A stretch of DNA of 64,000 nt from Tsuneonella sp. CC-YZS046 (lineage in GTDB: Bacteria; Pseudomonadota; Alphaproteobacteria; Sphingomonadales; Sphingomonadaceae): NCBI RefSeq assembly GCF_035581365.1, contig NZ_CP141590.1, forward strand, positions 434,001-498,000. The letters run 5' to 3'. The notes beneath the pieces are model-generated. The model saw only the letters and a list, made by a program, of their open reading frames with translations. It made no database searches and was not told where the DNA came from. How positions within the stretch are numbered: position 1 is the first letter of the stretch; the number at the start of each line of letters is the position of its first letter. Below, one piece after another: positions 12,821-23,152 of the stretch. The position numbers and the translations under genes were made by a program.

Positions 12821-13015
12821 GACCTGGAAGGCGGAATCGACTATCCATTATTATGGCCAATATTGTGGATTGCCGATCCTTTCGGATACTTGCGGCAAGT
12901 GATGGAACGCGCTTCGCCCGCCGGATTCTTCCATTACCTTGAATGGCCACGGCGGATAGTTACCATGTGGTTGCCGGAAGGCCCACGGGCCTGGAATTAC
13001 ACGGCAAGTCTTTGA
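12821..13015 (+). pseudogene. Possible gene remnant left of attL
   Basis: A plus-strand frame from 12821 to a TGA at 13013 reads DLEGGIDYPLLWPILWIADP, continues with FGYLRQVMER and ends in MWLPEGPRAWNYTASL. The tryptophan/proline-rich, low-rarity composition looks like real protein. No start codon with a ribosome-binding site is visible except an internal ATG at 12902. The frame begins where the collapsed transporter ends. It may be the tail of a gene truncated by the rearrangement. I do not recognise the family, and it may be chance. Confidence 0.25.
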
Positions 13016-13018
13016 AAA

Positions 13019-13066
13019 TATGGTGCCGGCTACAGGATTCGAACCCGTGGCCCCCTGATTACAAAT
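13019..13066. repeat. attL: displaced tRNA-Thr 3' end
   Basis: 48 bp identical to 22169-22216 except for one base (t at 13038, g at 22188). It contains the CCA end, acceptor strand, T-arm and variable region up to the anticodon loop of the tRNA on the minus strand. Past 13066 the sequence diverges, so no complete tRNA is present here. The left copy has the canonical T-loop base, suggesting it is the original chromosomal tRNA end and that the element supplied the right copy. Confidence 0.9.
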
Positions 13067-13183
13067 TTGCGTTTGGTCGTTCTCTCGCATTGCCTGCCAT
13101 TGCATAAAGTTGCAGAAAACCGCTGAATCCCTTGCCATTATCGTACCTACCGTTGTATGGTGTTGCTTACCGTTCCTGAAACG

Positions 13184-13201
13184 GTGCTTATTCAGTGCTT
13201 A
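13184..13201 (+). repeat. Left subterminal repeat, candidate integrase arm site
   Basis: GTGCTTATTCAGTGCTTA: two GTGCTTA units with a four-base spacer, 23 bases before the integrase start. The same 18-mer with one change is at 22105-22122, just inside the right end. A third degenerate unit (TTGCTTA) is at about 13163-13169. Paired direct repeats inside both ends of a tyrosine-integrase element are the usual arrangement of arm-type binding sites. Confidence 0.6.
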
Positions 13202-13223
13202 TTATCGAGGCTGGTAATCACGC

Positions 13224-14462
13224 ATGGCAACGATCACGATCCGGGCAGTCAAGGCATTCCAGGCGGATGAAAAGCCCGCCTTTCTATGGGATGACGAGGT
13301 GCGGGGCTTTGGCCTGTTGGCGCAGCCATCGGGCAGCAAGACCTATGTGTTCCAGTATCGGGCGGGCATAGGGCGCGCAGGCAAGGTGCGCCGCGTCACG
13401 CTCGGCAAGCACGGCAACCTTGCCCCCGATGAGGCGCGCAAGCTGGCCAAGGGGCTGGCAGCGGAGGTGGCCAAGGGCGGCGACCCGGTCGGGGACCGCA
13501 AGGCCAAGGCGGCGAGACAGGCGCTTACACTCAGCCAAGTGCTGGACAGCTTCATTGCCGATCACGCCAAGCAGAACCTGAAAGAAAAGACGTGGGCCGA
13601 ATATGAGCGGCTGGCGGACAAGATCATTAAGCCTGCGCTCGGCGCAATCGAGGTTGACGCACTTAAGACCGAGGACGTTGCGCGTTTCTATCGGGATGAG
13701 CGCAAGCAGGCGGCTACACAGGCGAGTTTAGCTGTTCGGGTGTTATCGTCTGCATTGTCTTGGGCGCAGGAACATGGTTTGCGCGGCGTTGGACCTAACC
13801 CGGCGCGGATCCGGCTGGCAGGCACCCGCAGGCGCGAGCGGCTGTTTAGCGATGCCGAGGTTGCCCGCATTCTGGCCGCGCTCGACAAGCTGGAAGCGGA
13901 CAACACCATTTGCCCCCAGGCGGCGCTTGGCGTGAGGTTGCTCTTCGCCACGGGATGCCGCGTTGGCGAGATATGCGCCCTGCGCTGGGAAGATGTTGAC
14001 CTTGAAGCCGGAGTAATCCGCTGGGGTGACACGAAGACCGGCTATCTTGAAAAGCCGATCACGGGGGAAGGGCGGGCCTTGCTGAAAGCCGCGCCCCGCA
14101 TTGTCGGCAGTCCATGGGTTTTGCCTGCCATCACAGCGCCCATGAAGGCGCTTCGCCTTGAGATCGTGCGCGAGGCGATGGAAGAGGCGATGAGCGCGGC
14201 CAGCGTCGAAGCTGGCGAAAATGCCAGCCTGCACCTGATCCGGCACTGGTTTGCCACGAAGACCTATAACAACCCGGCCATCGCCCTGCCGGTCGCCATG
14301 AAGATCGTGGGGCACAAGTCGGTCGCGGCGGCGATGCGATACGCTCACCCGCAGCGCGAAGAGATCGCCAAGGCTGCCGAGGCGGCATCGAAGCTCCGTA
14401 CGGCATCGGTGAAGGCCGCAGCCAAGCGCGGCAAGGTTGTGCAGATGGCAGCGTCAAAATGA
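13224..14462 (+). CDS. Tyrosine-recombinase integrase (DUF4102-type arm-binding domain)
   Basis: 412 residues. Residues 1-90 form the N-terminal arm-DNA-binding domain typical of P4/CP4-57-like integrases (FLWDDEVRGFGLLAQPSGSKT, RVTLGKHGNLAPDEAR). A SAM-like core-binding domain follows, then the catalytic domain with Arg246 in GCRVGEICALRW, His337 and Arg340 in LHLIRHWFA, His364 in GHKS and the nucleophile Tyr373 in MRYAHP. The full R-H-R-H-Y set is present, so the enzyme should be active. It catalyses site-specific integration and excision at the tRNA-Thr target. It lies beside attL, at the far end of the element from the intact tRNA. The next gene starts in its stop codon (ATGA). Confidence 0.95.
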   Translation: MATITIRAVKAFQADEKPAFLWDDEVRGFGLLAQPSGSKTYVFQYRAGIGRAGKVRRVTLGKHGNLAPDEARKLAKGLAAEVAKGGDPVGDRKAKAARQALTLSQVLDSFIADHAKQNLKEKTWAEYERLADKIIKPALGAIEVDALKTEDVARFYRDERKQAATQASLAVRVLSSALSWAQEHGLRGVGPNPARIRLAGTRRRERLFSDAEVARILAALDKLEADNTICPQAALGVRLLFATGCRVGEICALRWEDVDLEAGVIRWGDTKTGYLEKPITGEGRALLKAAPRIVGSPWVLPAITAPMKALRLEIVREAMEEAMSAASVEAGENASLHLIRHWFATKTYNNPAIALPVAMKIVGHKSVAAAMRYAHPQREEIAKAAEAASKLRTASVKAAAKRGKVVQMAASK

Positions 14463-15178
14463 GTGCGTGGGATGACTATCAGAGAGCGACCCGCCACTAT
14501 TGGCTGGCGCACGTCACGCCGGAGTCCGTCGCGGCCGCGCTGGCGGACTTCTCGCTGCAACCGCAGGTAAGCTTTGATTGGATTGCCGAGGCGATCAAAA
14601 GTGTTCCGACTGGACTAAGCCCGTTTGAATGGGACGGTTGCGAAGCGTTTACCGGACGGGCTTGGCCGCCAAATCGAACCACGGCGCGGGATGCGTGGAG
14701 AGATTTGTCCGGGGCTATCGGGGCCGTTTTTGAGATAATCTTGGAAAAGCAGCCCGAATTGGAATCCGGTATCAACGAGGATGATTCTCGGCGCATTCAG
14801 GCAGCAAGAGAGGCGCTAGGTGATCTATGGGATGTAGCCCGCTCGCGCGAGACTATGGACGCGGAGCCTAGGAAATATCGAAGCACTGCGGCCAAGGAAC
14901 TACGTATCGAGCAGGCGCTAGTGCTCTCCATCATTTTTAGGCGCGCGTTCGGCAGAGACGCGACAATCGACAACAGGGAAGTCACCGCAGGCGGCCTGTG
15001 GCCAGACTTTTACCGACGCATCATGGCATTGGCTTTCGATGCTCCGATAACGCGGCGCGATGAAACTGTGCTGGATGAGGCGCGCTCGCAAGTGCTCGAA
15101 ATCCGTAGGCGGATGCGTGAAAGATTTGGGGCAGGCGAAGACGACGAGGGGTATTTGTATTTTGGATTAGAGAATTAA
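14459..15178 (+). CDS. Unknown protein translationally coupled to the integrase
   Basis: 239 residues, starting in the integrase stop (ATGA). It is mostly alpha-helical and soluble, rich in Trp and acidic residues, with no signal peptide, membrane segment, cysteine cluster or nucleotide-binding motif. A tryptophan-rich N-terminus (WDDYQRATRHYWLAHVTPES) and an Arg-rich helix before an acidic end (EIRRRMRERFGAGEDDEG) are the only notable features. I do not recognise a family. Genes in this position in integrative elements are often directionality factors or cargo; at 239 residues it is long for the former. Codons include more rare ones (ctt, gat, att) than the chromosomal genes nearby. Confidence 0.7.
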   Translation: MSAWDDYQRATRHYWLAHVTPESVAAALADFSLQPQVSFDWIAEAIKSVPTGLSPFEWDGCEAFTGRAWPPNRTTARDAWRDLSGAIGAVFEIILEKQPELESGINEDDSRRIQAAREALGDLWDVARSRETMDAEPRKYRSTAAKELRIEQALVLSIIFRRAFGRDATIDNREVTAGGLWPDFYRRIMALAFDAPITRRDETVLDEARSQVLEIRRRMRERFGAGEDDEGYLYFGLEN

Positions 15179-15244
15179 TAAACCCCCGTGCAACGCAACT
15201 AGCAGCGCGACAAATGGTGAGCCTCTGCAAACGGAGGCAAACCA

Positions 15245-15457
15245 ATGGACCCGCAAATCAATACAGAATTGCTAGTGGTAAAGGAGGCGGCGGATTATTG
15301 CCGTCTCAGCCAGAGCTATCTCAACACCTTACGCGTTAGCGGTGGCGGTCCGGCCTTTCTCAAGCTTGGCAGCGCCGTCAGATATCGTCGTACCGATCTC
15401 GATGCATGGCTGGAATCCCGGCTTGCCCGATCAACTAGTGCGCGGGAGATGGCATGA
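15245..15457 (+). CDS. AlpA-like helix-turn-helix protein (excisionase/regulator)
   Basis: 70 residues of the MerR-like/AlpA DNA-binding family (HTH_17). LLVVKEAADYCRLSQSYLNT is the helix-turn-helix, followed by the wing GPAFLKLGSAVRYRRTDLDAWLESR. AlpA-type proteins in P4-like satellites and integrative elements act as excisionase or activate integrase and early genes. The overlap with the next frame (ATGA at its stop) begins a run of coupled genes up to the primase. A purine-rich GGAGGC stretch lies about 10 bases before the start. Confidence 0.85.
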   Translation: MDPQINTELLVVKEAADYCRLSQSYLNTLRVSGGGPAFLKLGSAVRYRRTDLDAWLESRLARSTSAREMA

Positions 15458-15729
15458 TGGACCGCCCCGCACTGGCCGCGATCTGGCCGCCGACCGCTGC
15501 CGTTGCAGCCCTTGCCGGGCACAACCCCAAGTCACCGATGCAGGCGATCCGGGAGAAGTGCCTGGATTGCACCGGCTATCAGCCATCCGAAGTGGCACGT
15601 TGTGAGAGCGTGATTTGCCCGCTGTGGCCGTTCAGGGCTGGAAAGCATCCTTACACCGCATCGGCGCTGAAAAAGGCCGCCCTGGACGCATCTTTTGAGA
15701 AAACAGGGGCGGTTGAGGGGGAGTCATGA
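15454..15729 (+). CDS. Small Cys-rich phage-type protein
   Basis: 91 residues. The core KCLDCTGYQPSEVARC, then CPLWPFRAGKHPY, has four cysteines in a C-x2-C...C-x4-C arrangement and the CPLWP-F-R-x-G signature. Small proteins with this signature are frequent in proteobacterial prophages and mobile elements, close to replication genes, and probably bind zinc. The function is not known. It overlaps both neighbours by four bases, so it is co-translated with the AlpA-like protein and the next gene. Confidence 0.75.
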   Translation: MMDRPALAAIWPPTAAVAALAGHNPKSPMQAIREKCLDCTGYQPSEVARCESVICPLWPFRAGKHPYTASALKKAALDASFEKTGAVEGES

Positions 15730-16169
15730 CGATGCAGACAGCATGGGAGGCCGCCGTTGCGGCGGAAAAGTTCGCCCGTTCGACGATGGAACAATACCGC
15801 GCCGAGATACTTGTCCCCGCCGATAAGGCGTATGCTGAGGGGCGGGCGACGTTTCAGCATTTGAGCGGCGCGGAGGAAGGTTGGGAACCCTACACGTCTG
15901 CCCTTGCCGACGCCCTTGATGCCATGATCCTGACGCCTGCCCCGACGCTGGCGGACGTTGTGTTCAAGTTGGAACGGGGGCTGGCGGACGGCGCGTTCGA
16001 TGGGCGCGGCGACACCAACCGGAAGATCCGCGTGGTGGTGGAGGATGTTCGTCGCCTTGGCATCAATCAGTTTGCCGCTTCCAAGACAGAAGCGGCATCT
16101 GTCACCGAAGGCTGGCCGCTGTTTAGCAATTGCGATGATGACACGCCGCCGGAGGGTGATGCCGCGTGA
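15726..16169 (+). CDS. Small unknown protein of the element
   Basis: 147 residues, helical, with an acidic C-terminal end (NCDDDTPPEGDAA). The start overlaps the upstream stop; a second in-frame ATG lies six bases on. There is no recognisable domain, no membrane segment and no signal peptide. It is translationally coupled to the primase gene on its right by a GTGA overlap. Homologous-looking unknowns often sit directly before primase-helicase genes in sphingomonad prophages, so a replication accessory role is possible, but this is only a guess from context. Confidence 0.65.
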   Translation: MTMQTAWEAAVAAEKFARSTMEQYRAEILVPADKAYAEGRATFQHLSGAEEGWEPYTSALADALDAMILTPAPTLADVVFKLERGLADGAFDGRGDTNRKIRVVVEDVRRLGINQFAASKTEAASVTEGWPLFSNCDDDTPPEGDAA

Positions 16170-18196
16170 ACGCCGACACCTTTGCGCCAATGATGCGCGA
16201 TGTGGCGATAGCCCTTTTCGGGCTGCCGAACCAGCGCCTTAGCAACGCCGAAACGCTGCGCTGGGGGAATCATGGCAGCCTCAAGGTCGATCTGGCTGAT
16301 GGCGTCTGGCACGACAAAGAGGCCAACGAAGGTGGTGGCGTACTCGATCTGGTTATGCGTGAACGCGGCTGCGACAAAGCCGGTGCGCTGGCGTGGCTGG
16401 AAGGGGAGGGGTTGATCGCGCCTCGCGAACAGGCCCCCGGGAAACCCATATTTTACGACTATCGCGACGAAGCCGGCGCGGTGTTGTTCAAGGTGGAACG
16501 ACGCGGCAAGGGTAATATCCCGCCTTTCCTCCAACACGGGCCGGACGGCAATGGCGGCTTTGTAGCGCGCAAGGACATTATGCAGGGCGTGCGCCTGGTT
16601 CCATACCGTCTGCCTGAGCTGATCGTCGCCGATCCTGCTGCCATCGTTTTCATTTGTGAGGGCGAGAAGGATGCCGACCGACTAGCGAGGCTGGGGCTTG
16701 TCGCAACAACTAGTCCGGGGGGCGCGGGCAAGTTTCGGGCAGAGTTCGCGCCGCTGTTTGCCGATCGTCGTGTGGCGGTCCTGGAAGACAATGATCAGGC
16801 CGGCCGAGATCATGCTGCGGATGTGGTGGCGAAACTGGACGGCGTTGCGGCCGATGCGGTTGCACTCAAGTTACCGGGGCTTCCGCAAAAGGGCGATGTT
16901 TCGGACTGGCTGAACAACGGCGGCTCCGCTTTTCAGCTTCTCCAGATTGCCGAGACGGCACTGGGAACGGACGCACTGCCATTGCCGACGCTCGATCTTG
17001 CCGCGCTGGCAAAGACCCGCGCCAAGGCCAAGCCATTCGCGATCGAACGCATTGCGCCGCTGGCCGAGACAACGTTGTTCACCGGGCCGGGATCGGCTGG
17101 CAAGAGCCTGTTAGGGCAACAACTCGCCACGGCTGGTGCGGCTGGACTGCCCTGCCTGGGATTGAATGTGCAGCCGGGGCCGACGCTCTATCTCACCTGC
17201 GAGGATGATGCCGAGCAACTGCACTGGCGGCAGGAGCACCTTTGCGCCGCTATGGGGTCCAGCATGGCGAGCCTGGCCAACAAGCTACACCTGGTAAGCC
17301 TCAGGGGCGAGCTGGGCAACGAGCTGGCGACGTTCACGCGCGACGGTAAGATGACACCGGCCGTCACATTCCAGCGTATAGCCTCGATGCTTCGGAAAAC
17401 CGGCGCGAAGCTCGCCTTTCTCGATAACGTGGCGCACCTGTTCACGGGCAATGAGAATGACCGTGGCGACGTGACACGGTTCGTCAACCTGCTGAACAGG
17501 CTGGCCGGGGAAACCGGCGCGGCGATCGTGCTGCTGGGGCACCCGAACAAGCATGGCGACGAATGGAGCGGATCGACCGCATGGCCCAATGCCGTTCGCT
17601 CACGGATATACCTGGAGCACGATGAGGATAGCGACATCCGCACCCTCACGCTGCCTAAGGCCAACTATGGGCAGAAGGGCGAGGTTGTCCGCTTCCGATG
17701 GTTCGATTGGGCGTTCTGGCGTGACGAAGACTTGCCTGCAGATACCCGCGCCGAGCTTGCCGAGGTCACCAAGGCCAATGGCGAGAACGCTGCCTTCCTT
17801 CGCTGCCTCGCCCAACGCACGAAAGAGCGCCGGCACGTCTCCGAAAAGGTGGGAGCCAACTATGCTCCCAAGATTTTCGCCACCATGGTCGAGGCGAAGG
17901 GGATGAAGAAAGAGCGGCTGGTCGAGGCTATGGACCGGCTGTTTCGTATAGGTGCAATCGAGCGTGGATTCCTCTGGCGAGACACCGCCGAGGGCAAGGA
18001 TATTTTCGGCCTCCGGGAAACCGGAAACGTAACCGGAAACCGACCGGAAACTACTTCCGCAAACGACCGGAAACCCGCAGAGAGCGACCGGAAAACACAC
18101 CCTATAGATACTACGTATCAATCAGGCGCGGCCTCTCAGTCCGCCGCGCCCGAAGACGATGACCTAGATTGGGGCGACAATGGGGAGGGCGAGTAG
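16166..18196 (+). CDS. Primase-helicase: TOPRIM domain fused to RecA-like ATPase
   Basis: 676 residues with a GTG start that overlaps the previous stop; GGAGG lies 11 bases upstream. Residues about 30-130 include WHDKEANEGGGVLDLVMRERG of the primase zinc-finger-like region, although the zinc cysteines are not evident. The TOPRIM domain follows (IVFICEGEKDADRLARLG, then VAVLEDNDQAGRDHA). The second half is a RepA/AAA_25-type ATPase with Walker A GPGSAGKS and Walker B-like LAFLDNVAHLF. The C-terminal tail is low-complexity (GNVTGNRPE... DDDLDWGDNGEGE) because the DNA there carries iterons. It is the likely replication initiator of the element. Confidence 0.88.
   Translation: MNADTFAPMMRDVAIALFGLPNQRLSNAETLRWGNHGSLKVDLADGVWHDKEANEGGGVLDLVMRERGCDKAGALAWLEGEGLIAPREQAPGKPIFYDYRDEAGAVLFKVERRGKGNIPPFLQHGPDGNGGFVARKDIMQGVRLVPYRLPELIVADPAAIVFICEGEKDADRLARLGLVATTSPGGAGKFRAEFAPLFADRRVAVLEDNDQAGRDHAADVVAKLDGVAADAVALKLPGLPQKGDVSDWLNNGGSAFQLLQIAETALGTDALPLPTLDLAALAKTRAKAKPFAIERIAPLAETTLFTGPGSAGKSLLGQQLATAGAAGLPCLGLNVQPGPTLYLTCEDDAEQLHWRQEHLCAAMGSSMASLANKLHLVSLRGELGNELATFTRDGKMTPAVTFQRIASMLRKTGAKLAFLDNVAHLFTGNENDRGDVTRFVNLLNRLAGETGAAIVLLGHPNKHGDEWSGSTAWPNAVRSRIYLEHDEDSDIRTLTLPKANYGQKGEVVRFRWFDWAFWRDEDLPADTRAELAEVTKANGENAAFLRCLAQRTKERRHVSEKVGANYAPKIFATMVEAKGMKKERLVEAMDRLFRIGAIERGFLWRDTAEGKDIFGLRETGNVTGNRPETTSANDRKPAESDRKTHPIDTTYQSGAASQSAAPEDDDLDWGDNGEGE
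18020..18122 (+). repeat. Iteron array with AT-rich stretch, candidate replication origin
   Basis: Nine-base repeats ACCGGAAAC start at 18020, 18032, 18043, 18066 and 18087 (the last ends in A instead of C). A degenerate copy TCCGCAAAC starts at 18056. Start-to-start distances are 12, 11, 13, 10 and 21 bases, close to one or two helical turns. Directly after the last copy comes a low-GC segment (CCTATAGATACTACGTATCA around 18101-18120), unusual in this GC-rich window. Iterons followed by an AT-rich unwinding region inside the initiator gene is the arrangement of the lambda O origin and of several satellite origins. Confidence 0.65.
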
Positions 18197-18241
18197 AGCT
18201 ATGCCCGCCTCTCTCTTTCGCGCTCCAAAAAAGGCTATGCG

Positions 18242-18667
18242 ATGACCGGCGAGATTCGGACCCGCCTGCGGCGGCTGGCGGACGATTGCGAAGAGCGGGC
18301 ACGCCGGGCGGATAGCGCCGATGCGCGAAGCCTGTTCCACCAGACCGCGATGCTGGCGCGTAAAGCTTCACAGCAACCCTACCAGACCGAGGGGGACTTG
18401 CAGGGCTGGCTTGACGCCATGAGCGCCCAGGCAGGCGTGGCGCGGTTCCTGGACGGCGATCCCGTGGACTATGCCACCTTTCAGCCATCGCGGCGACCGG
18501 CACGATTGCTGAGTGCTCGCCAGCTTGCCGACCTGTTCGGGATGACGGAACGCGGCGCGCGAAAGGCAATCGAGCGGGGGCATCGCAGGCGGATTTATGG
18601 CTTCCATCGCGACGGCAAGAGGTGGCTTGCGGAGCGAGATGCGTTCGGAAATCTGATCGGCAATTAG
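18242..18667 (+). CDS. Unknown protein with C-terminal helix-turn-helix
   Basis: 141 residues. The N-terminal half is helical and Arg/Ala-rich (RLRRLADDCEERARRADSAD). The C-terminal third (LLSARQLADLFGMTERGARKAIERG, then GFHRDGKRWLAERDAF) resembles an excisionase- or MerR-like DNA-binding domain. It is the first gene after the primase, 45 bases downstream of its stop. The likely role is a regulator or an accessory DNA-binding protein of replication or packaging, as inferred from position. No ribosome-binding site stands out before the ATG. Confidence 0.6.
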   Translation: MTGEIRTRLRRLADDCEERARRADSADARSLFHQTAMLARKASQQPYQTEGDLQGWLDAMSAQAGVARFLDGDPVDYATFQPSRRPARLLSARQLADLFGMTERGARKAIERGHRRRIYGFHRDGKRWLAERDAFGNLIGN

Positions 18668-18817
18668 TAGGGAACCCATACCAGAACACGAAATGTCGTG
18701 CTTTTTAAGCAACACTGCCAATCCAATAAGCACGGGATAATCACGGCAGTCACGAAGCCGCTTGATCCACCAGTTCCGTTTCAGTTCCGCAAAACCCCGA
18801 TTTGCTATGCAGCGGTC

Positions 18818-19279
18818 ATGACGTTGCCGACCATCCCCAAGCCCCGCACCCGGCGCGGCCCTGCCCCCAAGCAGCCACCAGCCAATGCGGCGGACCTGAT
18901 CCGCGACCTTGCCGCCGATGGCTGGGCGATCCTGGGCATCGCGAAGCGGCTGGGCACAAGCAAGGATACCTTCGCCCGCTGGCTCGATCAGAACCCGGAT
19001 TTGCAGGAAGCGTTCGACGCGGGCCGGGAGAACGAACGCTATGCGCTGCACAACATGCTCTACCGGCAGGCCATGGAGCACGGCAACGCCACGGCGGCCA
19101 TGTTCCTGCTGAAAGCGCGCCACGGATACCGCGAGGGCGACCAGAGCCAGACCGGCGGACGCGTCAATGTCACCATCGCCCTGCCCGGTGCGATGACGCT
19201 GCAACAGTTCACATCGATCGGCGCGAAGGCAGCGCCGTCCGCTGTTCCAACAATCGAAGGAAAGGAAATCGTTCAATGA
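18818..19279 (+). CDS. Terminase small subunit-like protein
   Basis: 153 residues from ATG 18818; the frame is open further left, but the conserved part begins at about residue 20. AADLIRDLAADGWAILGIAKRLGTSKDTFARWLDQNPDLQEAF is a helix-turn-helix of the type found in phage small terminase subunits. It is followed by ALHNMLYRQAMEHGNATAAMFLLKARHGYREGDQ, also a standard terminase-small pattern. TerS binds the packaging site on DNA and recruits TerL. It lies two small genes upstream of the large subunit, the usual order. A four-base overlap couples it to the next gene. Confidence 0.78.
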   Translation: MTLPTIPKPRTRRGPAPKQPPANAADLIRDLAADGWAILGIAKRLGTSKDTFARWLDQNPDLQEAFDAGRENERYALHNMLYRQAMEHGNATAAMFLLKARHGYREGDQSQTGGRVNVTIALPGAMTLQQFTSIGAKAAPSAVPTIEGKEIVQ

Positions 19280-19509
19280 CCGAGGATAAGCTCGCACTGA
19301 TGCGCCGCATCGGGGCATCGCTCAAGACTATCGGTGCAGCATGCGCCGAGAGCTTCAACCATGCCTGTGCTGGCAGCACGACGCCGTTGCAGCCCTTGGA
19401 CGAACGGCTCGGCCAGGAGGTTCGGAACCTGCGCCGCGATGGCCAGGGTCAGCTTGCGGATGCCCTGCTGGCTTTTCGTGACGAAATGGGAGCGAATGAC
19501 AATGGCTAG
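19276..19509 (+). CDS. Small unknown protein between terminase genes
   Basis: 77 residues starting in the stop of the TerS-like gene (ATGA). It is helical, with a LRRDGQGQLADALLAFRDEMGAND end and two cysteines in the middle. No domain is recognised. The coupling suggests a packaging-related accessory function, without proof. It overlaps the next gene by eight bases. Confidence 0.6.
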   Translation: MTEDKLALMRRIGASLKTIGAACAESFNHACAGSTTPLQPLDERLGQEVRNLRRDGQGQLADALLAFRDEMGANDNG

Positions 19510-20206
19510 AATTGCCCACCACAAGGTCCGCGCGCTGGGAGCAATCGCTGAACGCATGGCGCGATCAGTCGGCGAGAAGGGCGACAACGCGGCAGCACGC
19601 CGGTTTCTGGCCGAGGTCAATCGCGTTCATGCGGGCGCGGCGGCACTGGACAATGTGCGTGCCAACCGCAGTCCTCTCGACACGGCGGAAGGCCATGCGC
19701 TGAAGGTCGGCAAGCTGGCGAAGAAGTTCGACAATGAGGTCACGGCGGTCATCAATCGCTCTGGTGAAATATGGCGCGAGGGAATGAGCGACGTGCAGCG
19801 CCGGATCGACGAGAAGATCGATCTGAAACCGAATGCTTTTGCGGAGGAAATCCGCGCGACTTTTCGCACAATGAACCGGAAATCGAAGGTGGAACTGCTC
19901 GGCCAGCTCGTGAAGGAAAACAGGGGGCCGGAGCTTGCCGCCATCGTGAAGGCTCCCTCTATTCTGTCCGGAATCAGCGATGCGGAACGGGCGGATTATG
20001 AGCGGGCCATTATTTCCATGCATGCTCCGAAGGAACTGGCGGAACAGACATGGCTCGATGAACTCTTCGATTCGGTTGGCATCGTAGCGACAACTTCAAG
20101 CGGCCTCGTGCGCGACTTCATGGATCCCGGTGAGCTTGCTCGCATAGAACGCGCAGAGGCTTCCGCGGTAGAAGCTGGCGAAGCGTTCGACCAGTCGCTG
20201 CAATGA
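19502..20206 (+). CDS. Unknown helical protein upstream of TerL
   Basis: 234 residues from ATG 19502 (GGGAG at nine bases; an ATG six bases earlier is an alternative). It is strongly alpha-helical with heptad-like stretches (LKVGKLAKKFDNEVTAVINRSGEIWREG, RRIDEKIDLKPNAFAEEIRATFRTM). There is no membrane segment, signal peptide or enzyme motif. Proteins of this kind are found directly before the large terminase gene in many sphingomonad and rhizobial prophages, but their function is not established. It overlaps TerL by four bases. Confidence 0.65.
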   Translation: MARIAHHKVRALGAIAERMARSVGEKGDNAAARRFLAEVNRVHAGAAALDNVRANRSPLDTAEGHALKVGKLAKKFDNEVTAVINRSGEIWREGMSDVQRRIDEKIDLKPNAFAEEIRATFRTMNRKSKVELLGQLVKENRGPELAAIVKAPSILSGISDAERADYERAIISMHAPKELAEQTWLDELFDSVGIVATTSSGLVRDFMDPGELARIERAEASAVEAGEAFDQSLQ

Positions 20207-21594
20207 ACCTCGAGCTAAACCCGTTCCAGGAGCGGGTGATGATGCTGCCCGAGGAGGTTGACGCGTTCCTTGGCGGGGGGCGCGGCGGTGGCAAGTCCTA
20301 CGGCCTGGCACTGCTGGCGCTTCGCCATGTCGAGCAATACGGCACCGCTGCACGCATCCTGTATATTCGGCGCACCTATAAGGGGCTGGCGGATTTTGAA
20401 CTGATTGCCCGCGACTTGTTCGGTGCGGTCTATGGCGGAGCGGCGCGCTATAATTCGGCGGAACATGTCTGGCGCTTCCCCAACGGCGGCTATCTGGAAT
20501 TAGGCCAGCTCGAATCCCATGCCGACTACGCCAAATATCAGGGCCGCACCTTCACATTGCTGCTGGTGGACGAGGCGGGCCAGTATCCCGATCCGGCCTT
20601 GCTCGACATTCTCCGGTCCAACCTGCGCGGGCCGAAGGACGTGCCTATCAGGGCGGTTGTCGCGGCCAATCCGGGAGGGGTAGGGCACTACTGGCTGGCA
20701 AAGCGGTATGTGTTCAAATCAGCCCCCTGGACGGCTTTTCTGGAAGAGAAATCGGGGCGGCAATGGGTCTATGCCCCTTCGACCTTCGCGGGCAATCAGT
20801 TCATTGATCGGGAGCAATACGCCGATCAGCTACGCTCAAGCTGCCCCGACGATGCCGAGCTTTTAAGAGCTTGGACGGATGGGGATTGGGCAATAGCCCG
20901 TGGTGCCTATTTCGCCAGCGTGCTCGATGAAAGTCGCAACGCCGTGGACCCGTGGCAAGCCGTGCCGGAAGCGCTTGGCCACGGTTACGGGCCTGGAAGG
21001 CTATGGCTGACATATCTGGCACACGACTTCGGGAGCAGCGCGCCGAGCGTAACCTATATCGTCGCGCGTTCGCCGGGTGCCGAGGGACCGGACGGCAGGT
21101 TCTACCCTCGCGGCAGCCTGGTGCTGATTGACGAGCTGGCGACCTGTAAGCGCGATCGACCGAGCGAAGGCCTGGGCTGGACCGTTCCCATTCTGGCTGA
21201 GGAAATCGTCGCCATGTGCAAGCGCTGGGGAGTCAGGGCGCAGGGTGTCGCTGATGACGCGATATTTGCACAGACCGGCCATGGCGCCGGAAGCATCGCG
21301 AACGAGTTCGGGCGGTGTGGCGTTCATTTCCGTCCTGCTCGCAAGGCCGATCGGCTGACTGGCTGGACGATGATGCGAAGATTGCTGGCAGACGCCGGTA
21401 AGCCCGACGTGCCGGGCCTCTATATCTCGCGTGTCTGCGAATATTTCTGGTCAACCGTTCCGTATCTGGCGCGGGACCAGAAGCGCGTGGAAGATGTAGA
21501 TTCAAGCGGTCCGGACCATGCCGCCGATGCGGTGAGGTATGGGTGCCTGCGGCGCGATGATCGCATTCAGCGTGTTAGGCTTGGTGGGGTTTGA
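20203..21594 (+). CDS. Phage terminase large subunit
   Basis: 463 residues. The N-terminal packaging ATPase has Walker A GGGRGGGKS at 24-32, an adjacent C-motif region and Walker B LLLVDEAG with Asp123-Glu124. The C-terminal RNase H-like nuclease shows the expected acidic residues in AHDFGSS, GVADDAIF and GPDHAADAVRYG. All key motifs are intact, so the protein should cut and package DNA into a prohead. In a phage the next gene would be the portal; here the stop is followed within 30 bases by a convergent membrane-protein gene and then the att site. The element therefore has a packaging motor but no head to fill. Confidence 0.93.
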   Translation: MNLELNPFQERVMMLPEEVDAFLGGGRGGGKSYGLALLALRHVEQYGTAARILYIRRTYKGLADFELIARDLFGAVYGGAARYNSAEHVWRFPNGGYLELGQLESHADYAKYQGRTFTLLLVDEAGQYPDPALLDILRSNLRGPKDVPIRAVVAANPGGVGHYWLAKRYVFKSAPWTAFLEEKSGRQWVYAPSTFAGNQFIDREQYADQLRSSCPDDAELLRAWTDGDWAIARGAYFASVLDESRNAVDPWQAVPEALGHGYGPGRLWLTYLAHDFGSSAPSVTYIVARSPGAEGPDGRFYPRGSLVLIDELATCKRDRPSEGLGWTVPILAEEIVAMCKRWGVRAQGVADDAIFAQTGHGAGSIANEFGRCGVHFRPARKADRLTGWTMMRRLLADAGKPDVPGLYISRVCEYFWSTVPYLARDQKRVEDVDSSGPDHAADAVRYGCLRRDDRIQRVRLGGV

Positions 21595-21622
21595 GGCTCA
21601 CAACATCGACAGGCCGAGTAAT

Positions 21623-22066
21623 CTACTTCACCAGCGACATTTGCCAAATATGACCAGCAAGATAAGCTAGGGCTCCCACAAACAAATTCCAGCGTTGCCA
21701 GGTCATCCAAAATAGCGGCTTAGCCGCCGCGCTTTTCAAGTCGGTCTTTCCGCGTTCAAACTCTTCCGTAAGATAGATATGCGCCTCTGGAAGCTGCTCA
21801 TAGGCGTTTTTCTTGAACTGGATTATGTTGAAATTGAGCGTCAGAAACGACTGTCGCCGTTGAAGGGCGACGAGTCCGCTAAAGAAGCTGATCGCCCAGA
21901 ATATGACAGCTGCGCCGATCGGAATCATGGCAGGTGAAAACGGCTCTCCGGAAGTCTGGTGCACAGCAAATGCAATTCCACCACCCGCCGCGCCCAGCAC
22001 GAAGTGAATGAACTGCGACATTGAGCGCTGCAGTTCGCTATAGATGTCCAGAAGGCCATCGCTCAT
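21623..22066 (-). CDS. Three-helix membrane protein, cargo of the element
   Basis: 147 residues. Predicted membrane segments are at about 19-35 (FIHFVLGAAGGGIAFAV), 45-67 (AMIPIGAAVIFWAISFFSGLVAL) and 127-144 (FVGALAYLAGHIWQMSLV), with a charged cytoplasmic stretch of about 55 residues between the second and third. It is the only gene of the element on the minus strand, and base composition is visibly more AT-rich than in its neighbours. It lies between terL and the right end, where satellites and prophages often carry anti-phage or fitness cargo. No family is recognised; an abortive-infection or superinfection-exclusion membrane effector is one possibility by analogy only. Confidence 0.7.
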   Translation of the reverse strand: MSDGLLDIYSELQRSMSQFIHFVLGAAGGGIAFAVHQTSGEPFSPAMIPIGAAVIFWAISFFSGLVALQRRQSFLTLNFNIIQFKKNAYEQLPEAHIYLTEEFERGKTDLKSAAAKPLFWMTWQRWNLFVGALAYLAGHIWQMSLVK

Positions 22067-22104
22067 TTCTGCAACCTCACTCCCACCAGTCGCAGTCGCT
22101 CGCC

Positions 22105-22122
22105 GTGCTTATTCGGTGCTTA
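22105..22122 (+). repeat. Right subterminal repeat, candidate integrase arm site
   Basis: GTGCTTATTCGGTGCTTA, the same double GTGCTTA unit as 13184-13201 with one substitution, in the same orientation. It lies 46 bases inside the right attachment repeat. Its presence at both ends argues that the current element ends are the true ends and that the right end has not been lost. Confidence 0.6.
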
Positions 22123-22168
22123 GCGAGACCCCATGACAGACTGGAATTATCATATAACCCATTGATTT

Positions 22169-22246
<78 letters not shown>

Positions 22247-22264
22247 ACGCATCGCCCCTCTGCT

Positions 22265-23152
22265 TCAAACCGCGCCAAAGGTCCAGCCCTCCGTTCGAGC
22301 GATTTCATCGGTCATGCCCTTGGGCGCCCAAAGGCCGGGGCGATCCGCAACCATGCGCAGCCATGCGGCGGTGAGGAGTGCATCGGCGCTGTGATCGTCG
22401 ATCGGGCCAGCGCCGGGCAGGGGCGGGCAGCCCAGGGTTTCCAGCGCGCAATTCAGCTCCTGCCGGTCCTTCATCTTGCTGCGCGAAGCGGTGCGCCCCC
22501 CGGCGATCGCGGCAAGCGCCGTGTAGATTTCCACGATGACGGAGCCGCGCGCGGGCAGCGGGTCGATCGGCCAGACCGGTAGGCGCCCCGTCAGCCGGTG
22601 CAGCATCCGCATCCCCGAAAGGCTGGATTTGCCGACCTGCGCCGCGCCGACCAGGTTGAAATTGCTGTAGGGCTTGCAGCCCATCGCGGCCTGGGCCTGC
22701 TCGGTCACGCGGAAGCGGCCGCGCCGGTGGCCGGCCTTGGCATGGTGGAAGCGATCCCCCTCGCGCGCACCGTGCCGCCGGAAGTAGCGGGACGCGACCG
22801 GATGATCGACGAAGCTGCCCACGGTGAGATGCGGATCGTCCGTGCAGATTTCCTCCACCAGCGCCCACAGCCCATGCGCGTCGGCCGGGCTGCGCTCCCA
22901 GCCCGGGAAGAACGCGCCGCAATCGGCAAAGGGCATGGAGGTGCCGAGGTCGAGCCCCACCAGCGTATCGCCGGGCAGCTCGCGCCGGAGATAATCCAGC
23001 ACGCCTTCGCGCGACCACGCGCCGGTCGGCCGAACCAGCCGTGGCGGCCCGCCATCGTGCCCGCAGATGGCGACCGCGATCCCCTTCTGCCGCTCGCCCG
23101 CCGCACCGGACCAGTCAATCGCGGCAAAATGGCGGAACCGGCCGGGCCGCAT
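22265..23152 (-). CDS. DUF429-type RNase H-fold protein
   Basis: 295 residues from ATG 23152, which overlaps the rarA stop (ATGA), so the gene is co-translated with rarA. It opens with FAAIDWSGA, the acidic first strand of the RNase H-like fold, with further acidic positions in VGLDLGTSMPF, VIVEIYTALAA and DDHSADALLTAAW. This pattern fits DUF429, predicted to be a nuclease. Function is not experimentally known. Pairing with rarA points toward DNA repair or replication-fork processing. The frame continues slightly upstream of 23152, but the extension is short and unconserved. Confidence 0.75.
   Translation of the reverse strand: MRPGRFRHFAAIDWSGAAGERQKGIAVAICGHDGGPPRLVRPTGAWSREGVLDYLRRELPGDTLVGLDLGTSMPFADCGAFFPGWERSPADAHGLWALVEEICTDDPHLTVGSFVDHPVASRYFRRHGAREGDRFHHAKAGHRRGRFRVTEQAQAAMGCKPYSNFNLVGAAQVGKSSLSGMRMLHRLTGRLPVWPIDPLPARGSVIVEIYTALAAIAGGRTASRSKMKDRQELNCALETLGCPPLPGAGPIDDHSADALLTAAWLRMVADRPGLWAPKGMTDEIARTEGWTFGAV

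What the first reader, a model, noticed from the sequence alone, without database searches (positions are those of the whole stretch)
18020..18122. Helically phased iterons plus AT-rich stretch inside the primase gene: candidate origin
Five ACCGGAAAC copies (the last with one change) and one degenerate copy occur at 18020-18095, spaced 12, 11, 13, 10 and 21 bases, that is on one face of the helix. An AT-rich segment follows at once. The repeats force a low-complexity tail onto the protein, which suggests selection at the DNA level. Lambda O and several satellite initiators have origins inside their own gene.
Basis: partly seen in the sequence, partly recalled or inferred. Interest (0 to 1): 0.72.

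Follow-up and report, generated by a model that had tools for sequence, protein, structure and literature searches.

The report
Replication origin inside its replicase gene
The repeats at the end of a phage-satellite-like replication gene look like docking sites for that gene's own protein, followed by two DNA hairpins, and the same layout recurs at the end of nearly all the closely related genes examined, which points to a conserved, mix-and-match replication origin written into the tail of the gene.

Summary
The repeats are real: four exact ACCGGAAAC, one with one change, one with two, spaced 12, 11, 13, 10, 21. They end a primase-helicase gene of a 9.2-kb element between 48-bp direct repeats at tRNA-Thr.

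Homologues support an origin. Of 47 distinct homologous 3' ends, 43 carry a significant array (control gene ends: 6 of 313). Repeat letters differ between lineages, but 12-11-13 spacing recurs (16 of 47; permutation mean 1.4). Coding copies use all three frames; 79 of 287 copies lie beyond the stop. Two hairpins follow: one with a TAC/TAAA-type loop (41 of 47 with stem of 5 bp or more) and a GC-rich one. Repeat letters co-vary with the C-terminal winged helix, hairpin letters with the helicase domain; direct neighbours do not co-vary.

Corrections: the pitch is 11.4 bp, so not one face of a 10.5-bp helix; the hairpin, not AT-richness, is conserved.

Best reading: a satellite origin overlapping its initiator gene, PICI-, lambda- and RSF1010-like in parts; a new variant. 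Binding and replication untested.

The parts
16166..18196 (+). rep: primase-helicase-winged-helix initiator gene, 676 aa
   Evidence: phrog_239 DNA primase/helicase 4.2e-34; AlphaFold2 mean pLDDT 88.3, residues 624-676 mostly below 50
16982..17557 (+). RepA-like helicase domain (Pfam AAA_25), residues 273-464
   Evidence: AAA_25 4.8e-29; best PDB sequence relative is RSF1010 RepA, 1g8y, 2.1e-23, next 0.0011
17783..18025 (+). C-terminal winged-helix domain, about residues 540-620, proposed iteron-binding domain
   Evidence: AlphaFold2 of residues 524-620: pLDDT 91.6; winged-helix proteins among the top VIA-align rows, best Z 8.4, but no Foldseek match at E<=0.001
18020..18028 (+). iteron 1 ACCGGAAAC
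18032..18040 (+). iteron 2 ACCGGAAAC
18043..18051 (+). iteron 3 ACCGGAAAC
18056..18064 (+). iteron 4, degenerate TCCGCAAAC
   Evidence: the same letters in L152 and L153
18066..18074 (+). iteron 5 ACCGGAAAC
18087..18095 (+). iteron 6 ACCGGAAAA
18107..18119 (+). hairpin 1: GATAC-TAC-GTATC
   Evidence: TA-loop hairpin of stem >=5 in 41 of 47 homologous ends; 55 of 2400 shuffles; 6 of 313 control gene ends
18125..18150 (+). hairpin 2: GC-rich stem GGCGCGGC / GCCGCGCC with 10-nt loop
   Evidence: fold z -3.1 here; z<-2 in 32 of 45 homologues, in 2 of 45 and 3 of 45 control stretches
13019..13066 (+). left attachment-site repeat (48 bp, one mismatch to the right copy)
22169..22216 (+). right attachment-site repeat, overlapping tRNA-Thr (22171-22246, minus strand)
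13224..14462 (+). tyrosine integrase
   Evidence: Phage_integrase 6.2e-18
15245..15457 (+). HTH_17 (AlpA/excisionase-like) regulator
   Evidence: HTH_17 4.6e-11; phrog_66 5.3e-09
18818..19279 (+). terminase small subunit-like gene
   Evidence: phrog_309 4e-15
20203..21594 (+). terminase large subunit
   Evidence: phrog_2 1.6e-24

Best explanation
It is the replication origin of an integrated phage-satellite-like element, overlapping the 3' end of the element's own initiator gene. The C-terminal winged helix of the primase-helicase binds the iterons (about one protomer per 11.4 bp; median six copies). This places the RepA-like helicase ring next to the two hairpins just downstream, where the strands are opened and priming starts, and host polymerase then extends. 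Shown here by sequence comparison: the array, its spacing, its freedom from reading frame and stop codon, the two conserved hairpins, and the pairwise co-variation winged helix/iterons and helicase/hairpins. Inferred: binding, one protomer per iteron, that the hairpins are helicase or primase entry sites, and that replication starts here.
For: Arrays p<=0.01 in 43 of 47 homologous 3' ends; in 6 of 313 control gene ends. Spacing 12-11-13 in 16 of 47 (order-permutation mean 1.4, maximum 6 in 2000) with different repeat letters. 287 copies: 79 beyond the stop; coding copies in phases 0/1/2 = 75/75/58; 36 of 37 genes with two or more coding copies use more than one frame. Hairpin 1 in 41 of 47 with stem >=5; loop TAC or TAAA in 40 of the 45 placed; stem letters free (AT-rich or GC-rich); hairpin 2 z<-2 in 32 of 45. 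A DNA pattern of hairpin 1 plus the start of hairpin 2 hits 6 places in 397 genomes, all at rep 3' ends on the rep strand by their coordinates; the reversed control hits once by my reading of the table; in the viral collection 4 of 4 contigs hit carry rep at that place. Winged helix with iteron rho 0.43 (Mantel p 0.002), helicase with hairpin 2 rho 0.37 (p 0.004), while the neighbours helicase/winged helix (0.06) and iteron/hairpins (0.02, 0.06) are not correlated. In PICIs the region immediately 3' to rep is the origin (PMC6092414, passages).
Against: No binding, melting or replication data. DnaA-box matches 0 of 45, so host loading is unexplained. No separate AT-rich melting region is conserved; 7 of 45 hairpin-1 stems are GC-rich (my count). 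The hairpin-1 criterion (TA loop, stem >=5) was set after looking at the sequences. Hairpin 2 is weaker where it is non-coding (z<-2 in 9 of 18) than where it is coding (23 of 27). L136 has only 3 copies (p 0.13); L121 and L127 lack hairpin 1. Of 72 more distant primase relatives assessed, 18 reach the floor p of 0.024 for a repeat family and 9 show a TA-loop hairpin; most show neither. Helicase and iterons also correlate weakly (rho 0.12, p 0.02). Homologues are not independent, so the p-values overstate the evidence.
Confidence: 0.84

Rival explanations
1. The iterons and hairpins are an operator or RNA element that controls rep expression (autorepression, attenuation or copy-number control by handcuffing), not the origin itself.
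For: The conserved hairpins could also form in the rep mRNA; plasmid iterons often serve control as well (recalled).
Against: The element lies at the end of the gene; a simple scan of 17900-18900 found no promoter-like site and its one terminator-like site at 18687-18700, not at the hairpins; Rfam gave only the tRNA and one sub-threshold match in 13000-22300. Same-strand direct repeats with an 11.4-bp pitch suit a protein array on duplex DNA.
Confidence: 0.08
2. It is a packaging (pac/cos) or terminase-binding site.
For: In the window a terminase small-subunit gene starts about 670 bp downstream.
Against: The same layout stands near large terminases of different families (phrog_2 in the window, phrog_9 in L054 and L147, phrog_15 in L148), and in 16 of 26 stretches none of five terminase queries matched. 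The iterons co-vary with the Rep winged helix; window and L054 have similar iterons but different terminase families.
Confidence: 0.03
3. Protein-level repeats: a low-complexity tail selected as protein, with DNA repeats as a by-product.
For: In 28 of 45 homologues hairpin 1 is still inside the reading frame, and the tail is open over 50-100 codons in many.
Against: All three frames are used, 79 of 287 copies and 17 of 45 hairpins are beyond the stop codon, and the tail is predicted disordered.
Confidence: 0.02
4. Co-variation of winged helix and iterons is only physical linkage: cassettes recombine as neighbours, without functional fit (compatible with an origin).
For: The two are adjacent in the gene; helicase-hairpin similarity may reflect shared ancestry of the frame around a swapped cassette.
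Against: If closeness were enough, iterons and hairpin 1 (3-39 nt from the last counted copy) and helicase and winged helix should co-vary too; they do not.
Confidence: 0.2

Closest known systems
PICI / SaPI replication origins (pri-rep-ori)
   Same: Integrated satellite; origin at the 3' end of the replication gene; iterons (PMC6092414, passages)
   Different: PICI origins have two iteron sets flanking an AT-rich region; here there is one same-strand set (downstream of hairpin 1 only 15 copies against 10.2 expected over 45 loci), then two hairpins; the array overlaps the reading frame in most homologues
RSF1010 (IncQ) oriV with RepA, RepB', RepC and ssiA/ssiB
   Same: Helicase domain is RepA-like (1g8y 2.1e-23); iterons and hairpins; in RSF1010 RepC recognises iterons, RepA unwinds, RepB' primes at the ssi stem-loops (PMC4234260, first part of section 18)
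   Different: Here helicase, winged helix and (in the window) a primase-like half are one protein; repeats are 8-9 bp at 11.4 bp; hairpins lie in or next to the coding sequence; no priming shown
Lambda O / ori-lambda
   Same: Origin inside the initiator's own gene, iterons bound by that protein (PMC5043065, passages)
   Different: Lambda iterons are 19-bp inverted repeats with an AT-rich opening region (same passages); O is no helicase (recalled)
Phage P4 alpha protein and ori
   Same: One protein binds origin repeats by a winged helix, unwinds and primes (PMC4234260, section 18)
   Different: P4 alpha has an SF3 helicase (recalled); here the helicase is AAA_25/RepA-like
pRN1-type plasmids
   Same: Required stem-loop origin just 3' of the multidomain replication gene (PMC4234260, abstract and passages)
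   Different: pRN1 has no iterons, and has an archaeo-eukaryotic primase and SF3 helicase (section 18)

Membership tests
PICI | Iteron-bearing region at the 3' end of the replication gene | tested here: met
   43 of 47 rep 3' ends carry a significant array; that it is the origin is not shown
[quoted passage not shown]
   300 nt downstream of hairpin 1, 45 loci: 15 copies found, 10.2 expected (same strand); 3 found, 6.0 expected (reverse); arrays have about 6 each
PICI | Induction and packaging by a helper phage | not testable with these tools
   needs culture work
RSF1010-type (IncQ) replicon | RepA-family hexameric helicase | tested here: met
   1g8y 2.1e-23; Foldseek 1nlf TMt 0.75; hexamer itself not tested
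RSF1010-type (IncQ) replicon | Three separate proteins RepA, RepB', RepC | tested here: not met
   One 676-aa chain in the window
RSF1010-type (IncQ) replicon | ssi hairpins used as primer sites | tested here: inconclusive
   Hairpins present; their use is not testable here
Lambda-type origin | Iterons inside the initiator's coding sequence | tested here: met
   18020-18095 inside 16166-18196; true of 208 of 287 copies in homologues
Lambda-type origin | 19-bp inverted-repeat iterons | tested here: not met
   8-9-bp direct repeats at 11.4 bp
P4 alpha family | SF3 helicase domain | tested here: not met
   Pfam hits at E<=0.01 are AAA_25 and KaiC-type ATPase only
P4 alpha family | Origin-binding winged helix of P4 alpha fold | tested here: inconclusive
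   A winged helix is predicted; P4 alpha is not in the listed rows, which excludes nothing
pRN1-type | SF3 helicase domain | tested here: not met
   As for P4 alpha
Capsid-forming satellite (cf-PICI) | Own portal and capsid genes | tested here: not met
   Among ten proteins of the window element scanned, only terminase subunits hit head-and-packaging families; related loci L054, L147 and L148 do carry a portal

The most novel reading that the evidence does not exclude
A so far undescribed, modular origin family: a single-protein, RSF1010-like replicon of phage satellites and prophages of sphingomonads, in which the origin is written into the 3' end of the initiator gene. A winged-helix/iteron cassette sets replicon specificity and is exchanged between elements as a unit, while the helicase-primase keeps its own matching pair of hairpins (small TAC/TAAA-type loop, then GC-rich) as loading and priming sites; hairpin 1 works by shape and loop, not by AT-rich melting.
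Probability: 0.4. Interest if true: 0.76.

Novelty: new variant of a known kind. Interest (0 to 1): 0.66.

Why it matters
It gives dozens of natural, compact origin-plus-initiator units in which the specificity pair (winged helix and iterons) appears to have been swapped repeatedly within one frame. That makes two questions directly testable: how a winged-helix initiator reads its iterons, and what a hairpin next to an iteron array does in a system whose initiator is also the helicase. It also gives a sequence signature (array, TA-loop hairpin, GC hairpin at a rep 3' end) for finding satellites and their origins, and a caution that a low-complexity protein tail can be a by-product of an origin.

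Tried and rejected
Chance repeats: rejected. Protein-level repeats: rejected by frames and stops. Packaging site: disfavoured by the different terminase families. Rfam family: only the tRNA and one sub-threshold match. Terminator: none at the hairpins. DnaA boxes: 0 of 45; IHF-like sites: 5 of 45 at zero mismatches (null mean 0.17) but not in the window, so not part of the core; a loose Fis-like pattern in 18 of 45 (null mean 11, maximum 19) says nothing (consensus letters recalled). Second iteron set downstream as in PICIs: not found; same-strand copies were 15 against 10.2 expected downstream and 21 against 14.5 expected in the 500 nt upstream, not tested further. Distant relatives: 77 loci among L021-L098, of which 3 run off their contig and 2 were too short, leaving 72; 18 reach the floor p 0.024 (40 shuffles, 600 nt around the stop) and 9 have a TA-loop hairpin; a few, such as L061 and L083, have arrays downstream of the stop; not used in the main counts. 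RNAalifold on the MAFFT alignment recovered hairpin 2 only, with little covariation energy (-0.27); I take this to come from MAFFT misaligning the variable stems, so the hairpin-1 case rests on shuffles and control gene ends, not on an alignment-based covariation test. P4 alpha's origin-binding domain did not appear in the listed fold matches. Literature: ten searches listed no paper whose title or abstract start describes this origin type; subscription journals are mostly not held.

Rows dropped: of 73 loci reaching residue 590, 48 were distinct; L122 (cut by its contig end) was left out of the iteron counts (47); L020 and L121 were also left out of the first Mantel test (45 rows), and L127 (no hairpin 1) too (44 rows). 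L121, L122 and L127 have no hairpin 1 and are missing from the hairpin listing (45). In one search the hairpin printed for L020 is a different one further on; its own 5-bp stem was used later. My notebook says 42 printed hairpins; the right number is 41. Main and control iteron tests differ slightly: up to 170 nt before hairpin 1 with 200 shuffles, against 120 nt before to 50 nt after a stop codon with 100 shuffles.
Full report
Observation. The repeats are at the stated places: ACCGGAAAC at 18020, 18032, 18043 and 18066, ACCGGAAAA at 18087, and TCCGCAAAC at 18056; spacings 12, 11, 13, 10, 21. Two exact copies 0-4 bases apart occur nowhere else in the 3.35-Mb genome. The six-copy 8-mer family was reached by none of 200 dinucleotide shuffles of the 90 nt examined.

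Setting. The gene (16166-18196) encodes a 676-aa protein: primase/helicase by PHROG (phrog_239, 4.2e-34; primase families at residues 154-262), AAA_25 by Pfam (4.8e-29), and a C-terminal winged helix by structure prediction. No Toprim model of Pfam reached E 0.01; the primase label rests on PHROG and on the match of the whole model to T7 gp4 (Foldseek 1e-15, TM 0.28 by query length). The only strong sequence relative in the PDB is the RSF1010 helicase RepA (2.1e-23; next 0.0011). The winged-helix model found no Foldseek match at E<=0.001; winged-helix proteins are among the top VIA-align rows (best Z 8.4), which shows the fold class but no close relative. The folded part ends at about residue 620; residues 624-676, encoded by repeats and hairpins, are predicted disordered. 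The gene sits in an element of about 9.2 kb between 48-bp direct repeats (13019-13066 and 22169-22216, one mismatch), the right one overlapping tRNA-Thr, with integrase, HTH regulator, small and large terminase subunits; no portal or capsid family was hit by the ten proteins scanned.

Homologues. Relatives came from genome searches (11 of 197, 27 of 396 and 23 of 397 genomes with hits at E 1e-20, 1e-40 and 1e-60; overlapping sets of genomes), genome contigs (39 loci), viral contigs (45 loci) and a DNA pattern. Seventy-three loci reached residue 590; 48 were distinct. One (L122) is cut by its contig end, leaving 47. Named ones include Novosphingobium olei and Alteraurantiacibacter buctensis. 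Eighteen of the 48 reading frames are only 388-515 aa from stop to stop, so the primase half is not always on the same chain (my count from the listing; frames cut by a locus end, and L020's 193-aa frame, not counted).

Iterons. In up to 170 nt before hairpin 1, 43 of 47 loci have a repeat family at p<=0.01 and 46 of 47 at p<=0.05; the exception is L136. Of 313 other gene ends from 26 stretches, 6 reached p<=0.01. Copies per array: median 6, range 3-10. Repeat letters differ (CCGGAAAC, CCCGAAC, GCGGGAAA, GCACAAC, GCACCAAC, CCGATGAC types), yet the spacing 12-11-13 occurs in 16 of 47 and 12-11-13-10 in 10 of 47; permuting the order of spacings gives means of 1.4 and 0.27. Several of these loci are close relatives. 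Coding copies are spread over phases 0/1/2 as 75/75/58, 36 of 37 genes with at least two coding copies use more than one frame, and 79 of 287 copies lie beyond the stop codon. This is selection on DNA, not on protein.

Pitch. The best common period is 11.4 bp (mean resultant 0.80 against 0.42 for random non-overlapping placement at that period); at 10.5 bp it is 0.37. So the copies do not sit on one face of ordinary B-DNA; they turn by about 30 degrees per copy, unless the bound DNA is underwound. Arrays were scored on the rep strand; reverse copies inside arrays were 11 against 2.8 expected over 45 loci, and downstream of hairpin 1 there were 15 same-strand copies against 10.2 expected and 3 reverse against 6.0, so no second set.

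Hairpins. A perfect stem of at least 5 bp with a 3-4-nt loop starting TA, a criterion set after looking at the sequences, is found in 41 of 47 ends, in 55 of 2400 shuffled regions and in 6 of 313 control gene ends. Four more have a 4-bp stem (L018, L130, L109, L125), recognised by eye; L121 and L127 have none. Loops are TAC (26), TAAA (14), TAA (2), TATA (2), TAAC (1), while stems range from TATATA to CCCCCC; seven of 45 are GC-rich by my count, so AT-rich melting is not what is conserved. Hairpin 1 is coding in 28 and non-coding in 17 of 45. Hairpin 2 has z<-2 in 32 of 45, against 2 of 45 and 3 of 45 control stretches; it is weaker where non-coding (9 of 18) than where coding (23 of 27).

Location test. 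The pattern ATACTACGTAT-(2 to 12)-GGCGCGG was sought in 397 genomes: six matches, each at the end of a rep gene on its strand by coordinates; the reversed control matched once by my reading of the table. In the viral collection four contigs matched and all four carry rep at that place.

Co-variation. Along the gene the order is helicase, winged helix, iterons, hairpins. Pairwise similarity of iterons follows that of the winged helix (rho 0.43, Mantel p 0.002) and similarity of hairpin 2 follows that of the helicase (rho 0.37, p 0.004; hairpin 1 rho 0.19, p 0.02; the two hairpins 0.24, p 0.01), whereas direct neighbours do not correlate (helicase/winged helix 0.06, p 0.20; iterons/hairpin 1 0.02; iterons/hairpin 2 0.06). 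Helicase and iterons correlate weakly (0.12, p 0.02) and winged helix and hairpin 1 slightly negatively (-0.14). These are 44 rows; 42 rows after removing helicase pairs above 85% give much the same. Examples: the window and L152 share 47% of the helicase but 90% of the winged helix and nearly the same iterons; L152 and L151 share 69% of the helicase but 42% of the winged helix and have different iterons. The simplest reading is a winged-helix/iteron cassette moving within a helicase-hairpin frame. Linkage alone should also make iterons and hairpins co-vary, which they do not; but shared ancestry of the frame can explain helicase with hairpin, so that pair is suggestive only.

Which elements. 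The module occurs with different packaging genes: Rep, HNH, TerL (phrog_9), portal and integrase (L019, L054, L147, L149, L163, L170); TerL phrog_15 with portal and protease (L148); a match to a tape-measure protein in the same stretch (L015, L164, L167); and in 16 of 26 stretches none of five terminase queries matched. This argues against a packaging site.

Mechanism proposed. Winged helix binds iterons in register (inferred); about six protomers would suit a hexameric RepA-like ring (inference from median copy number and family); the ring is set next to hairpins 1 and 2, which act as entry or priming sites as the ssi stem-loops do in RSF1010 (analogy; PMC4234260, first part of section 18 read). 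No melting or priming was tested.

Known relatives. PICIs have the origin immediately 3' to rep with iterons on both sides of an AT-rich region (PMC6092414, passages); lambda has its origin within O (PMC5043065, passages); pRN1 needs a stem-loop just 3' of its replication gene (PMC4234260, abstract and passages); the PLE satellite has iterons in a non-coding region, one repeat of which binds RepA (PMC7145576, passages). The present type combines features of these and meets not all tested features of any. Ten literature searches listed no description of it.

Limits. Homologues share ancestry, so p-values are rough; iteron families were found by the same search used to count them, which the shuffles and control gene ends allow for; five short hairpins were placed by hand; nothing was shown in the laboratory.

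Noticed in passing
window 13019-22216: A compact integrated element with integrase, HTH regulator, rep-ori, small and large terminase but no portal or capsid family hit by the ten proteins scanned: a terminase-bearing satellite or a remnant.
   Followed up: partly
L054, L147, L149, L019, L163, L170: Loci with Rep, HNH, TerL (phrog_9), portal and integrase close together and no tail gene among the few proteins scanned: a candidate family of capsid-type satellites in sphingomonads.
   Followed up: partly
window 18073-18083 and other arrays: A second conserved box like ACCCGCAGAAA lies inside 14 of 45 arrays (null mean 3.0, two mismatches allowed); function unknown.
   Followed up: partly
L016, L125, L101, L109, L118: IHF-consensus sites in the array region of 5 of 45 loci (null mean 0.17), several sharing a block close to CTAAGTCATTGA; the window has none.
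   Followed up: partly
L127, downstream of the rep stop: In place of hairpin 1 there is a long inverted repeat (AGAGAGAAAGGGGG...CCCCCTTCTCTCT) after a six-copy array (read).
   Followed up: no
L061 and L083: Distant primase relatives with eight-copy repeat families downstream of the stop codon (many spacings 10-12 bp), so 3' iterons may reach beyond this family.
   Followed up: no
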